Positions 9,234-46,008 of a stretch of 64,000 nucleotides of DNA are shown piece by piece (the stretch's first letter is position 1; the number at the start of each line of letters is the position of its first letter). The DNA comes from Dietzia sp. ANT_WB102. GTDB taxonomy: Bacteria; Actinomycetota; Actinomycetes; Mycobacteriales; Mycobacteriaceae. The stretch spans positions 1 through 64,000 of the forward strand of contig NZ_VOBA01000003.1 of assembly GCF_008369165.1 (NCBI RefSeq), in the 5' to 3' direction. Position numbers and translations under genes: made by a program. The notes beneath the pieces were generated by a model, which saw only the letters and a program-made list of their open reading frames with translations, had not been told where the DNA came from and did not search any database.

Positions 9234-9264
9234 TTAAACCAGCCACGGACACGGACGGTATCGT
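9234..9264 (+). promoter_or_regulatory. Orphaned host tRNA-Lys promoter
   Basis: TTAAAC (9234-9239), 19-nt spacer, TATCGT (9259-9264), then 7 nt to the tRNA 5' end at 9272. It is the original host promoter and now drives only the tRNA 5' half at the left attachment site. The -10 is good; the -35 spacing is long. Confidence 0.5.
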
Positions 9265-9270
9265 GACCAA

Positions 9271-9312
9271 CGCCCCTATAGCTCAGTTGGTAGAGCTACG
9301 GACTTTTAATCC
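9271..9312 (+). other. attL: tRNA-Lys 5' half (host copy)
   Basis: The tRNA-Lys sequence runs from the acceptor 5' strand through the anticodon loop (CTTTTAA) and then breaks into phage DNA at 9313. It matches 45931-45973 except for one missing T in the D-loop (GTTGGTAG here, GTTGGTTAG there). The identical block to the right of that difference is 22 nt (9291-9312 and 45952-45973) and is the likely crossover region. Read leftward, the block also encodes the last residues and stop codon of the repressor gene. Confidence 0.92.
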
Positions 9313-9588
9313 ATAGTCCGTGTTTTCTTCGCCCCCGCCGCCTCCGGTGGGGGTTTTTCCTGTTTCGAGCCAGGTGGCGTTGACGCCAGTCATGAGGGCG
9401 ATCTGCATGATCTGGTGCCGCTTCGGTGGGACTCCATCGTCGCGGCACCACCTACTTATGGTGCCGCGGCTGAGTTCGAAGTAGTCCATGAGGTCTGTCT
9501 GCTTGAGGCCGGCGGCGTCGATTGCCATCTGGATGCGCCATCCGAGGGTGAGTTCCGGGACGCCGTTGGGCTGGATGCTGTGTGTCAT
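9283..9588 (-). CDS. Immunity repressor (XRE/HTH), C-terminus encoded in the attachment core
   Basis: A 101-residue Cro/CI-type DNA-binding protein expected to hold the prophage silent. The helix-turn-helix is at about residues 14-70 (GLKQTDLMDYFELSRGTISRW, then VNATWLETGK). A Gly/Glu linker and a tail ending GLKVRSSTN follow; that tail is written in the tRNA-Lys core and stops at a TGA in the tRNA D-arm. In rebuilt attP the extra T shifts past this stop and the frame continues 24 residues to a terminal EAAA (see 45878-45951). I chose ATG 9588 because TTGACC-N18-CATACT ends six nt before it (leaderless) and a perfect operator-like palindrome overlaps it. A longer start at 9624 would lie inside the promoter. 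The design matches integration-dependent repressors of BPs/Brujita-type phages; the stability difference is inferred. Confidence 0.88.
   Translation of the reverse strand: MTHSIQPNGVPELTLGWRIQMAIDAAGLKQTDLMDYFELSRGTISRWCRDDGVPPKRHQIMQIALMTGVNATWLETGKTPTGGGGGEENTDYGLKVRSSTN
9318..9335 (+). repeat. attP arm repeat, left prophage end
   Basis: CCGTGTTTTCTTCGCCCC just outside the core. A near-identical copy, CCGTGTTCTTCGCCCC, lies at 45921-45936. In circular phage DNA the two are direct repeats flanking the core, so they are candidate arm-type integrase sites. Confidence 0.5.
9332..9358 (+). terminator. Intrinsic terminator inside the left attachment arm
   Basis: Stem 9332-9339 / 9346-9353 (one G-T pair) followed by TTTTT. 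It would stop rightward transcripts from the orphan tRNA promoter before they run far antisense to the repressor. The same bases encode the Gly-rich linker of the repressor on the other strand. A smaller hairpin (ACGGACT/AGTCCGT, about 9299-9321, then TTTT) precedes it. Confidence 0.65.
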
Positions 9589-9595
9589 AGACACA
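9581..9595. promoter_or_regulatory. Candidate repressor operator
   Basis: Perfect inverted repeat TGTGTC-ATA-GACACA covering the repressor start codon and transcription start. This is a natural autoregulation site. Further GTGTC half-sites occur at about 9607 and 9653 in the divergent promoter region. Confidence 0.6.
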
Positions 9596-9624
9596 GTATG
9601 TGGCACGTGTCCGACGTGGGTCAA
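9595..9624 (-). promoter_or_regulatory. Repressor promoter (leaderless)
   Basis: Reverse strand: TTGACC (9624-9619), 18-nt spacer, CATACT (9600-9595), then six nt to ATG. In circular phage DNA it would also read into the integrase gene. Confidence 0.65.
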
Positions 9625-9659: not shown

Positions 9660-9688
9660 TTGACCGACGTGATGCAATGCACCATAGT
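9660..9688 (+). promoter_or_regulatory. Early rightward promoter (leaderless)
   Basis: TTGACC (9660-9665), 17-nt spacer, CATAGT (9683-9688), seven nt to ATG 9696. It is back to back with the repressor promoter. Confidence 0.65.
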
Positions 9689-9695
9689 GATCCAC

Positions 9696-9884
9696 ATGAC
9701 ACCCACGGAACTGCTCACAAGCACCCAAGCGGGCGTCATTCTCGGAAAGTCCAGCCGCACCGTGATCCGACTCATCGAAGCCGGAGCAATCACACCCCTC
9801 GGAAAACTCAACGGACCCAACGGCCCGTACGTGCTCACCAGGACCGCGGTCGAGGACTACGCCGAGAAGACACTCGCCGCATAA
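9696..9884 (+). CDS. Excisionase/Cro-like small HTH protein
   Basis: A 62-residue protein with a MerR/HTH_17-type winged helix: LLTSTQAGVILGKSSRTVIRLIEAGAI followed by a wing (PLGKLNGPNGPYVLTRTAVEDY). Proteins of this size and fold beside a repressor are typically excisionases or directionality factors, or the Cro-like partner. First rightward gene, read from its own leaderless promoter, so it would start the lytic programme. It ends TLAA, an ssrA-like C-terminus. The ATG at 9696 is preferred over an upstream in-frame start because of the promoter position. Confidence 0.75.
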   Translation: MTPTELLTSTQAGVILGKSSRTVIRLIEAGAITPLGKLNGPNGPYVLTRTAVEDYAEKTLAA

Positions 9885-13462: not shown

Positions 13463-14257
13463 ATGTCGCTCGAGTTGCAGCCGTGCGGCACCAACGCCGC
13501 ATACCAGAGGCACATGAAAGCCGGCGAGCAGCCGTGCGAGCCATGCGTGTTGGCGAACCGTGAGCAGAGCCGCGCCAGCTATAAGCCGAAGAAGCTGGAC
13601 ACCTCCGACTTGCAGCCGTGCGGCACCCGCGCCGCATACCAACGCCATGTGAGGGCAGGCGAGCAGCCGTGCGATGCGTGCCTGGAGGCGAACCGTGAAC
13701 GGAATCGTGCCCGCTATAAGCCGAAGCCGCGGGACACGTCCAAGTTGAAGCCGTGTGGCACTCAGGCCGCGTACAAGCGGCACAGGGCTGCCGGTGAGGA
13801 ACCGTGCGATGCGTGCAAGAAGGCGAATCGTGACGCGTTCAGGGCTCGTCGTGAGGCGTTGCGGAAGAAGTCGCCGGCGTTGAAGCCGTGCGGCACTCAT
13901 GCCGCCTATCAGCGTCACTTGAAGGCTGGGGAGCAGCCGTGTGAGCCGTGCAGGCAGGGGTACCGGGATTACATGAAGGAGTACCTACGCAAGAAGGCGG
14001 AGAAGGCGAAGAACGCCGCACTGCCTGTTGTTGCGCCGGAGAACGCGCACAAGGCCCCTTGCACGGATCCGAGGAACGGTTACATCTGGGATCCGCGTGC
14101 TGACGGCGAGGGGCCAGGTGTGGTGGAGGCCCGGTGGCGGCGTGCCGCTTTCCTGTGTGTGTCGGAGTGCCCGGTGGTTGCTCATTGTCGTGAGTCGCGG
14201 GCTTTGGCTGGTGGCGATGGTGTGTGGGCTGGACGGATCCCGGAGCGTGTGTCGTGA
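13463..14257 (+). CDS. Four tandem Cys/His repeats fused to a WhiB-like domain
   Basis: 264 residues from ATG 13463 (AAAGGA seven nt upstream; a GTG at 13439 would add eight residues). Residues 5-165 carry four copies of a 45-residue repeat with core PCGTxAAYxRHxxAGExPCxxC, each offering three Cys and a His, likely a zinc-binding module. After a linker the C-terminus (about 195-264) resembles WhiB: C200, C232, C236, C242 and a GVWAG turn in place of the usual GVWGG. The middle pair is CxxxC, not the standard CxxC, so Fe-S binding is uncertain. WhiB proteins partner sigma factors, and phage WhiBs can repress host whiB genes. A role in switching transcription is plausible but unproven. Confidence 0.75.
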   Translation: MSLELQPCGTNAAYQRHMKAGEQPCEPCVLANREQSRASYKPKKLDTSDLQPCGTRAAYQRHVRAGEQPCDACLEANRERNRARYKPKPRDTSKLKPCGTQAAYKRHRAAGEEPCDACKKANRDAFRARREALRKKSPALKPCGTHAAYQRHLKAGEQPCEPCRQGYRDYMKEYLRKKAEKAKNAALPVVAPENAHKAPCTDPRNGYIWDPRADGEGPGVVEARWRRAAFLCVSECPVVAHCRESRALAGGDGVWAGRIPERVS

Positions 14258-44911: not shown

Positions 44912-45823
44912 TTACGCGGCGCCGTGTAGCCGCGGGACGGATTGCCACGGGTCGAGGCGGTCAATAGCGTCACGACGCACCTCATCGGGTAACTGCGCAT
45001 AAATAGCGGTCGTCGCAACATTCTGATGCCGCAGCAAGTCTCTGACTGTGTAGATGTCGGCGCCATCCGCGAGGAGTTGCGTGGCGAAGAAGTGACGCAA
45101 CTGGTGCGGGGTACCTGTCACCCCGGTACGGCGCATCTGATCCGAGATGGTGCGAGACACCGACTTGGCTTGGACGTGTTCGGACGGGTAGTGGCGGGAC
45201 GGGAACCACCAGCCCCGGTCAGGCATCCGCCGCGACCACTCCCCCACAATCGGATGCAGCGGTAGTTCTGCCGGCTTCTTGCCTTTGCCTTTGACTCGTA
45301 GGGTTTGGCGGTCCAGGTCGATGTCCTCGGTGCGGATTTTGGCGATCTCATGGACCCGCAACCCCTGTAGTGCGGCGAGCAGGATCATGGCGTGGGTGGA
45401 CATGCGGGTGGGGGCTGACAAGAGTTTCTGTACGTCCCTGCCGGAGAGGGGGCGCGGGAGCCGTGTCGGGGCTTTGGGTGTTCCCACTTTCACCATCGGG
45501 TTGTCGGCCCGGTGATCGTGTGCCTGTAACCACTTGAACCAGGCGTTGAGGTATCCGACGTAGTTGGCGATTGTGGAGTCGGCCCAGGTGTCGTGTTCTG
45601 CTATCCAGCGGGTGATGATGAGCGGGTCAGCGTGCGCGGGCTGGACGCTTGTTTCGCGGAAGAACTGCGTGAGTACGCGGCGCCGTTCGCTGATGGTGTT
45701 GTGTGCCAATCGTCTTGCGGCTTGCCACAACTCGTATTCGTCAAGGTGTGTGATGGGCATGGCGTTACTGTCGCTCACATCACGCAGCCGGGGGTGTCGT
45801 GTTGCCGGGTTGTTATATCCCAT
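44912..45823 (-). CDS. int: Phage integrase (tyrosine recombinase)
   Basis: 303 residues. N-terminal arm/core-binding region (about 25-115), catalytic domain R156 (LQGLRVHEIAKI), K180 (KGKGKK), H240-xx-R243 (TPHQLRHFFATQ), H266 (LRHQNVATTAIY), Y275. All catalytic residues are intact. It sits 54 nt inside the right prophage end. In circular DNA it lies directly downstream of the repressor on the same strand, so both could share one transcript. It ends RLHGAA, an ssrA-like AA terminus, as known for BPs-type integrases. Start is uncertain among ATG 45823 and an ATG before PITHLDEYELW at about 45760. Confidence 0.93.
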   Translation of the reverse strand: MGYNNPATRHPRLRDVSDSNAMPITHLDEYELWQAARRLAHNTISERRRVLTQFFRETSVQPAHADPLIITRWIAEHDTWADSTIANYVGYLNAWFKWLQAHDHRADNPMVKVGTPKAPTRLPRPLSGRDVQKLLSAPTRMSTHAMILLAALQGLRVHEIAKIRTEDIDLDRQTLRVKGKGKKPAELPLHPIVGEWSRRMPDRGWWFPSRHYPSEHVQAKSVSRTISDQMRRTGVTGTPHQLRHFFATQLLADGADIYTVRDLLRHQNVATTAIYAQLPDEVRRDAIDRLDPWQSVPRLHGAA

Positions 45824-45895
45824 TGGTGTTATTCACTGCCTGCTCGATGGTGGGTGTGTGGTCGAGCGGGCCGGGTGTCATGCGGCTGCCTCTCG

Positions 45896-45924
45896 TTGGA
45901 ACAGATCACGGACGGTGCTACCGT
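45896..45924 (+). promoter_or_regulatory. Phage-borne promoter of the functional tRNA-Lys
   Basis: TTGGAA (45896-45901), 17-nt spacer, TACCGT (45919-45924), then 7 nt to the tRNA 5' end at 45932. It replaces the host promoter left behind at 9234-9264. The same bases encode the viral repressor tail on the other strand. Confidence 0.65.
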
Positions 45925-45936
45925 GTTCTTCGCCCC
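45921..45936 (+). repeat. attP arm repeat, right prophage end
   Basis: CCGTGTTCTTCGCCCC, matching 9318-9335 except for two T residues. Its last bases are the tRNA acceptor strand. Confidence 0.5.
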
Positions 45937-45973
45937 TATAGCTCAGTTGGTTAGAGCTACGGACTTTTAATCC
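45931..45973 (+). other. attR: tRNA-Lys 5' half (phage copy)
   Basis: As attL (9271-9312) but with an extra T in the D-loop (GTTGGTTAG). The 22-nt block 45952-45973 is identical to 9291-9312. Host DNA resumes at GCAGGTCGCC. Confidence 0.92.
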
Positions 45974-46008
45974 GCAGGTCGCCGGTTCGAGCCCGGCTGG
46001 GGGCACCA
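45932..46008 (+). tRNA. tRNA-Lys (TTT), hybrid of phage 5' half and host 3' half
   Basis: Acceptor GCCCCTA/TGGGGGC, D-arm AGCTCAGTTGGTTAGAGC, anticodon loop CTTTTAA (anticodon TTT), T-arm GCCGG-TTCGAGC-CCGGC, encoded CCA. Sequence upstream of the anticodon is from the phage, the rest from the host. Confidence 0.96.

What the first reader, a model, noticed from the sequence alone, without database searches (positions are those of the whole stretch)
9283..9588. Integration-dependent immunity switch: attP lies inside the repressor gene
Seen: the leftward repressor frame ends inside the tRNA-Lys core at attL (stop at 9283-9285). Joining the phage side of attL to the phage side of attR restores an uninterrupted frame that adds 24 residues ending EAAA; the integrase gene starts about 55 nt further on the same strand. 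Known: in BPs, Brujita and related mycobacteriophages attP is inside the repressor gene, the viral form carries an ssrA-like tag, and integration gives a shorter stable repressor. Inferred: the same switch works here in a different actinobacterial phage, using tRNA-Lys.
Basis: partly seen in the sequence, partly recalled or inferred. Interest (0 to 1): 0.95.

Follow-up and report, generated by a model that had tools for sequence, protein, structure and literature searches.

The report
Phage immunity switch inside lysine tRNA
A Dietzia prophage almost certainly turns its immunity on by integrating: joining the host's lysine tRNA gene cuts a degradation-type tail off its repressor; this known type of phage switch appears here in a new host genus, with an unusual twist in which one extra base in the phage's copy of the tRNA decides whether the tail is made.

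Summary
A 36.7-kb prophage sits in the tRNA-Lys(TTT) gene of a Dietzia genome. At attL the repressor stops inside the tRNA core (101 aa). Joining the phage sides gives a 123-aa repressor ending ...FQREAAA. So the T is phage-borne and crossover lies 3' of it; comparison with a D. alimentaria prophage narrows it to TAATCC.

D. cercidiphylli carries an unrelated repressor with the same arrangement: a different one-base D-loop difference from its host, a tail of the same length ending QAVAA, and the same prophage ending RSSTN*. D. alimentaria uses the same tRNA with the usual polarity (viral ...REIAA; prophage ...PAD*). All three integrases end in AA.

This is integration-dependent immunity as known from mycobacteriophages and Gordonia phages, new for Dietzia as far as I could find. 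Two features differ: the phage supplies the 5' half and a promoter-like region of tRNA-Lys, on DNA that also encodes the repressor tail; and the stop is hidden in attP by a one-base D-loop shift. Proteolysis and immunity are inferred.

The parts
9271..9312 (.). attL core: host 5' half of tRNA-Lys (TTGGTAG) joined to phage DNA at 9313
   Evidence: the same sequence is present in 15 other Dietzia tRNA-Lys genes; host flank ends at 9312 by BLAST
45931..45973 (.). attR core: phage copy of the tRNA-Lys 5' half with an extra T in the D-loop (TTGGTTAG, T at 45951/45952), joined to the host 3' half at 45974
9307..9312 (.). TAATCC, the only stretch where crossover is compatible with all three Dietzia prophages (attR counterpart 45968-45973)
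   Evidence: comparison of attL/attR in the window, D. cercidiphylli and D. alimentaria
9283..9588 (-). Prophage form of the immunity repressor, 101 aa, ending ...KVRSSTN*
   Evidence: Pfam Phage_CI_repr 3.5e-9; phrog_2328 transcriptional repressor 2e-22; Gordonia phage Phishy repressor 63.5% over residues 1-74
45878..45973 (-). [quoted passage not shown] The + strand of the same DNA carries the tRNA 5' half and its upstream region
44912..45823 (-). Tyrosine integrase, 303 aa, ending ...RLHGAA*
   Evidence: Pfam Phage_integrase 3.7e-26; 83% and 73% identical to two Dietzia prophage integrases; 52-54% to cluster N mycobacteriophages and Gordonia phage Dogfish
45932..46008 (+). Reconstituted tRNA-Lys(TTT): phage 5' half, host 3' half; the only TTT tRNA-Lys found in the genome
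45896..45924 (+). Promoter-like TTGGAA-17-TACCGT in phage DNA, at the same distance from the tRNA as the native TATCGT
   Evidence: below the cut-off of the consensus scan, so an inference
9259..9264 (+). [quoted passage not shown]
   Evidence: conserved in the other Dietzia genomes
9331..9354 (+). Intrinsic-terminator-like hairpin with T-run, inside the repressor coding sequence on the opposite strand; would stop antisense transcription from attL
   Evidence: (-20.5 kcal/mol, z -4.3)
9595..9624 (-). Repressor promoter-like TTGACC-18-CATACT; ATG at 9588 follows at once (leaderless)
9660..9688 (+). Divergent promoter-like TTGACC-17-CATAGT; ATG at 9696 (leaderless)
9696..9884 (+). Small HTH, excisionase-like protein, 62 aa, ending ...EKTLAA*
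   Evidence: resembles the annotated excise protein of Gordonia phage Phishy

Best explanation
This is an integration-dependent immunity switch. In the virion and the circular genome, the repressor gene runs through attP into an adjoining phage copy of the tRNA-Lys 5' half (read antisense) and then its upstream region. It gives a 123-aa repressor whose -AA end should mark it for ClpXP-type degradation, so infection defaults to lysis. Integrase, itself with an -AA end, recombines attP with the anticodon-loop region of host tRNA-Lys(TTT), within TAATCC. The repressor is then joined to the host's own tRNA 5' half, which is one base shorter in the D-loop. The shift brings the TGA of the conserved D-stem into frame, and a tag-free 101-aa repressor is made that can maintain lysogeny. 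At the other junction the phage's 5' half, with the extra D-loop base and a phage promoter-like region, rebuilds tRNA-Lys. Shown by sequence: site, polarity, frame change, tags, and repetition in a second prophage. Inferred: proteolysis, immunity and promoter activity.
For: Frame change at attP/attL. The extra T is absent from 15 other Dietzia tRNA-Lys genes, and the host flanks join there. D. cercidiphylli YIM 65002T (G020; named): unrelated repressor, TTTGGTAG in the phage against TTGGTAG in the host, viral ...RSSTKLSYRGVIEDSNVVPMRRQAVAA against prophage ...RSSTN*. Both tails span exactly 96 nt from stop to core end although the 59 nt outside the tRNA share only 32 bases. D. alimentaria 72 (G016): same tRNA and integrase family, viral ...PADYKSAIIAFPSRPGIEDHCPREIAA against prophage ...PAD*. 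Integrases end HGAA, NRAA, NAA. Host tmRNA tag ends ALAA. In the wider integrase family most repressor tails end in AA or VA. Closest repressors include M. abscessus prophages whose records note attP in the repressor. The prophage keeps terminase, portal, head, tape-measure and endolysin genes.
Against: No experiment on either repressor form, and attP was not observed directly. The assembly behind the extra T has not been checked against reads. The -AA end is a short motif; some systems of this class lack it and use other degradation signals (PMC8092301). The tRNA promoter in phage DNA is a weak consensus match.
Confidence: 0.87

Rival explanations
1. The repressor gene overlaps attP, but the tail is functionally neutral: both forms are equally stable and integration only trims an inert extension.
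For: No stability data exist. Many phages lie beside tRNA att sites, and open frames of this length are common by chance: about 30% of random in-frame reads are 12-45 codons long.
Against: Only 1-2% of random reads end in AA, yet three of three Dietzia viral repressors do, all three integrases do, and most relatives do. The frame is kept across a diverged tail of the same length by different one-base D-loop changes.
Confidence: 0.09
2. The extra T at attR is an assembly error or a mutation arising after integration in this strain, so attP really carries the in-frame TGA and the repressor is 101 aa in both states.
For: It is a single base, in an assembly whose reads were not available here.
Against: ARAGORN and the Rfam tRNA model accept the 77-nt tRNA. 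D. cercidiphylli shows its own extra base with the same effect on the frame. Without the T the frame would stop at the D-stem TGA, and the remaining codons to EAAA* would be open only by chance.
Confidence: 0.03
3. Crossover occurs upstream of the extra T, so the repressor does not change on integration and the T belongs to the host.
For: The core is identical on both sides of the T.
Against: Fifteen other Dietzia tRNA-Lys genes lack the T. Three prophages together confine crossover to TAATCC. Tyrosine integrases of this kind commonly act at the anticodon loop (PMC10865867).
Confidence: 0.01

Closest known systems
Integration-dependent immunity of mycobacteriophages (BPs, Brujita; clusters G, I, N, P), Broussard et al. 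2013, as described in PMC4557955
   Same: attP inside the repressor ORF, repressor then integrase on one strand, shorter prophage form, C-terminal tag on the viral form.
   Different: In Brujita and Charlie the tRNA 3' half lies in the retained part of the repressor and the tail carries no tRNA 5' half. Here the tail carries the 5' half and the retained part carries no 3' half.
Dietzia alimentaria 72 prophage (G016 / L047, L049, L052)
   Same: Same tRNA-Lys, integrase 83% identical, viral repressor ends REIAA, integrase ends NRAA.
   Different: Usual polarity. The stop (PAD*) comes from the host anticodon loop: GATTAA in the host, GATTAC in the phage.
Dietzia cercidiphylli YIM 65002T prophage (G020 / L038-L041, L053)
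   Same: Same polarity, same frame, same prophage ending RSSTN*, tail of equal length ending VAA, one extra D-loop base.
   Different: Unrelated repressor body, different D-loop change (TTTGGTAG), integrase 73% identical.
Gordonia phages with predicted integration-dependent immunity (Phishy, Ewald, Dogfish; cluster CW uses tRNA-Lys, PMC5559632)
   Same: Closest repressor (63.5% over the HTH region) and integrase (about 53%) relatives; tails end AA.
   Different: tRNA 3' half is in the retained part of the repressor.
MabA1 prophages of M. abscessus (PMC8092301)
   Different: They use tRNA-Met and are not among the clusters listed there with integration-dependent immunity.

Membership tests
Integration-dependent immunity systems | attP core lies inside the repressor open reading frame | tested here: met
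   independently in D. cercidiphylli
Integration-dependent immunity systems | Integration yields a shorter repressor with a stop at or near attL | tested here: met
   123 to 101 aa; TGA at 9285-9283
Integration-dependent immunity systems | Repressor and integrase on the same strand with attP between them; divergent cro/xis-like gene | tested here: met
Integration-dependent immunity systems | Viral form (and often Int) ends in an ssrA-like -AA tag | tested here: met
   ...QREAAA and ...HGAA; host tmRNA tag ...ALAA
Integration-dependent immunity systems | Viral form is degraded; prophage form is stable and confers immunity | not testable with these tools
   needs protein half-life and plating assays
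Integration-dependent immunity systems | Usual but not defining: phage carries the tRNA 3' half, rebuilding the tRNA at the repressor junction | tested here: not met
   tRNA rebuilt at the integrase junction from the phage 5' half; also in D. cercidiphylli
tRNA-dependent lysogeny (Fionnbharth type, PMC10865867) | Host tRNA not rebuilt; separate phage tRNA of the same isotype | tested here: not met
   tRNA-Lys rebuilt at attR; no other tRNA in the prophage
5'-half tRNA integration (MabA1-like) | Phage supplies the 5' half and upstream region of the target tRNA | tested here: met

The most novel reading that the evidence does not exclude
In two Dietzia phages one stretch of about 96 bp has several jobs: recombination site, degron-coding end of the repressor, and, on the other strand, the 5' half and promoter of an essential host tRNA. 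A one-base change in the tRNA D-loop, tolerated by the tRNA, is the reading-frame key that tells viral from integrated DNA. The conserved antisense TGA of the tRNA D-stem is out of frame in the phage and in frame in the host.
Probability: 0.7. Interest if true: 0.6.

Novelty: new variant of a known kind. Interest (0 to 1): 0.5.

Why it matters
It takes integration-coupled immunity into Dietzia, for which I found no such report, and shows a different way to build it. Host tRNA-Lys read antisense has a stop in all three frames just past the crossover (PAD*, RIKSP*, GLKVRSSTN*). A repressor entering in any frame is therefore cut within a few codons, which may help explain why tRNA sites suit this kind of switch. 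A phage that carries the tRNA 5' half would place that stop in its own tail, and these phages avoid it with one D-loop base. That gives a clean single-base test of the switch and a compact recombination-controlled degron. The lysogen would also depend on the phage's 5' half and promoter for its only tRNA-Lys(TTT).

Tried and rejected
Crossover left of the extra T: rejected from other Dietzia genomes and two further prophages. tRNA-dependent lysogeny: rejected, since the tRNA is rebuilt and no other tRNA is encoded. Viral-contig scans for the repressor and for the attP core ATAG sequence found nothing. A scan for antisense tRNA-Lys 5' halves of variable D-loop length found 39 matches, all of normal length. 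Near-DNA search in the phage collection gave only short matches at about 76% identity. The genus-wide search with the repressor protein found only the D. alimentaria repressor at 34%, because the D. cercidiphylli repressor is unrelated; it was found through the integrase and the att core. A tail-like reading in genome G028 (L096) next to a 5' fragment of tRNA-Arg looks like a decayed remnant and was not used. A wider order-level search added one distant integrase. The original 2013 Broussard paper and its companion review are not in the held library, so those features are cited through later papers.

Full report
What was claimed and checked. The sequence shows this. The core occurs at 9271-9312 and 45931-45973. 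ARAGORN finds the intact tRNA-Lys(TTT) at 45932-46008. The repressor (ATG 9588) stops at TGA 9285-9283 after 101 aa. The virtual attP frame gives 123 aa: 99 shared residues, then NQLSYRGEEHGSTVRDLFQREAAA in place of TN. The integrase frame starts 54 nt beyond.

The base that decides. The two core copies differ by one base: TTGGTAG at attL, TTGGTTAG at attR. The long frame exists only if the extra T belongs to the phage. The tRNA-Lys gene in 15 other Dietzia genomes reads TTGGTAG without exception. In most of them the sequences left of 9312 and right of 45974 lie next to each other, so this is the empty site. The T is therefore phage DNA and crossover lies to its right.

A second case. D. cercidiphylli YIM 65002T (G020, named) has a prophage on a 42.8-kb contig bounded by the same core, with host junctions on two other contigs. 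Its integrase is 73% identical. Its repressor body was not found by the repressor search and has a different sequence. Its phage core reads TTTGGTAG, a different one-base difference from its host's TTGGTAG. The viral frame runs ...NNGDYGLKVRSSTKLSYRGVIEDSNVVPMRRQAVAA* and the integrated frame ...NNGDYGLKVRSSTN*. From stop codon to core end both tails span 96 nt, yet outside the tRNA only 32 of 59 bases agree. The tails look homologous and diverged with the frame kept. I do not claim that the two D-loop changes arose independently.

A third case with the usual polarity. D. alimentaria 72 (G016) has an integrase 83% identical to the window's. Its repressor carries the tRNA 3' half in the retained part. 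The phage reads GAT TAC where the host anticodon loop gives GAT TAA, so the viral form is ...NRRPADYKSAIIAFPSRPGIEDHCPREIAA* and the prophage form ...NRRPAD*. Taken together, the three prophages allow crossover only within TAATCC. This is an inference that assumes the three integrases share one specificity.

A general point about the site. Read antisense, host tRNA-Lys has a stop in all three frames shortly after the crossover: PAD*, RIKSP* and GLKVRSSTN*. Members of the integrase family enter in different frames. A phage that carries the 5' half itself, as the window's does, would meet the D-stem TGA in its own tail. The extra D-loop base removes it from the frame.

Polarity. In the loci surveyed where a tRNA half could be recognised beside an integrase of this family, it was nearly always the 3' half, upstream of the crossover in the retained part of the repressor. 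A handful of loci could not be classified. The published norm is also the 3' half (PMC10865867). Islander counts 159 islands with a 5' fragment among 3919 (PMC4383910), and M. abscessus MabA1 prophages rebuild the 5' end of tRNA-Met (PMC8092301). I found no report of 5' polarity combined with integration-dependent immunity, but the library is incomplete and supplements were not available.

tRNA expression. The phage-supplied region upstream of tRNA-Lys has TTGGAA-17-TACCGT at the native distance from the gene, below the consensus-scan cut-off. This tRNA is the only one with anticodon TTT among the 47 found in the genome; one tRNA-Lys(CTT) exists. [quoted passage not shown]

Tags. The integrases of the three Dietzia prophages end HGAA, NRAA and NAA. 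The host tmRNA tag is ADTNQRDYALAA. Random in-frame reads of this DNA end in AA in 1-2% of cases. That the -AA end causes degradation is inferred from the known class (PMC4557955, PMC8092301); the latter also notes members without it.

Setting. The prophage has terminase, portal, protease, major head, tape-measure, minor tail and endolysin genes, and divergent leaderless promoter-like sites for the repressor and an excisionase-like gene. The host genus is Dietzia, from relatives named.

Verdict. The mechanism class is known. This is a new variant: new host genus, reversed tRNA polarity, and a one-base D-loop frame key, found in two phages.

Noticed in passing
window 9696-9884; L038 from 414; L047 from 1827: The excisionase-like protein next to the repressor also ends in AA in all three Dietzia prophages (TLAA, PAA, QAA). 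In other phages checked it mostly ends in ASA, VAS or PA. All three recombination/immunity proteins may be unstable.
   Followed up: partly
window 9259-9355: The stranded native tRNA-Lys promoter at attL would make a short chimeric RNA (tRNA 5' half plus phage sequence) ending at the terminator. The Rfam tRNA model scores this hybrid above its cut-off (33.7 bits).
   Followed up: no
window 13471-14010: Four tandem 135-nt repeats (61-80% identical to the first) inside the early region of the prophage.
   Followed up: no
L096 (G028:C1 around 720,633): An integrase relative beside a displaced 5' fragment of tRNA-Arg, read in sense by a frame ending QDVAA, about 5.9 kb from another copy of the tRNA sequence: apparently a decayed element that also used the 5' side of a tRNA.
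   Followed up: partly
L045 (G014:C1), L042 and L043 (G019): Further copies of CGGACTTTTAATCC inside degenerate tRNA-Lys-like sequences elsewhere in two Dietzia genomes, perhaps old attachment-site remnants.
   Followed up: no
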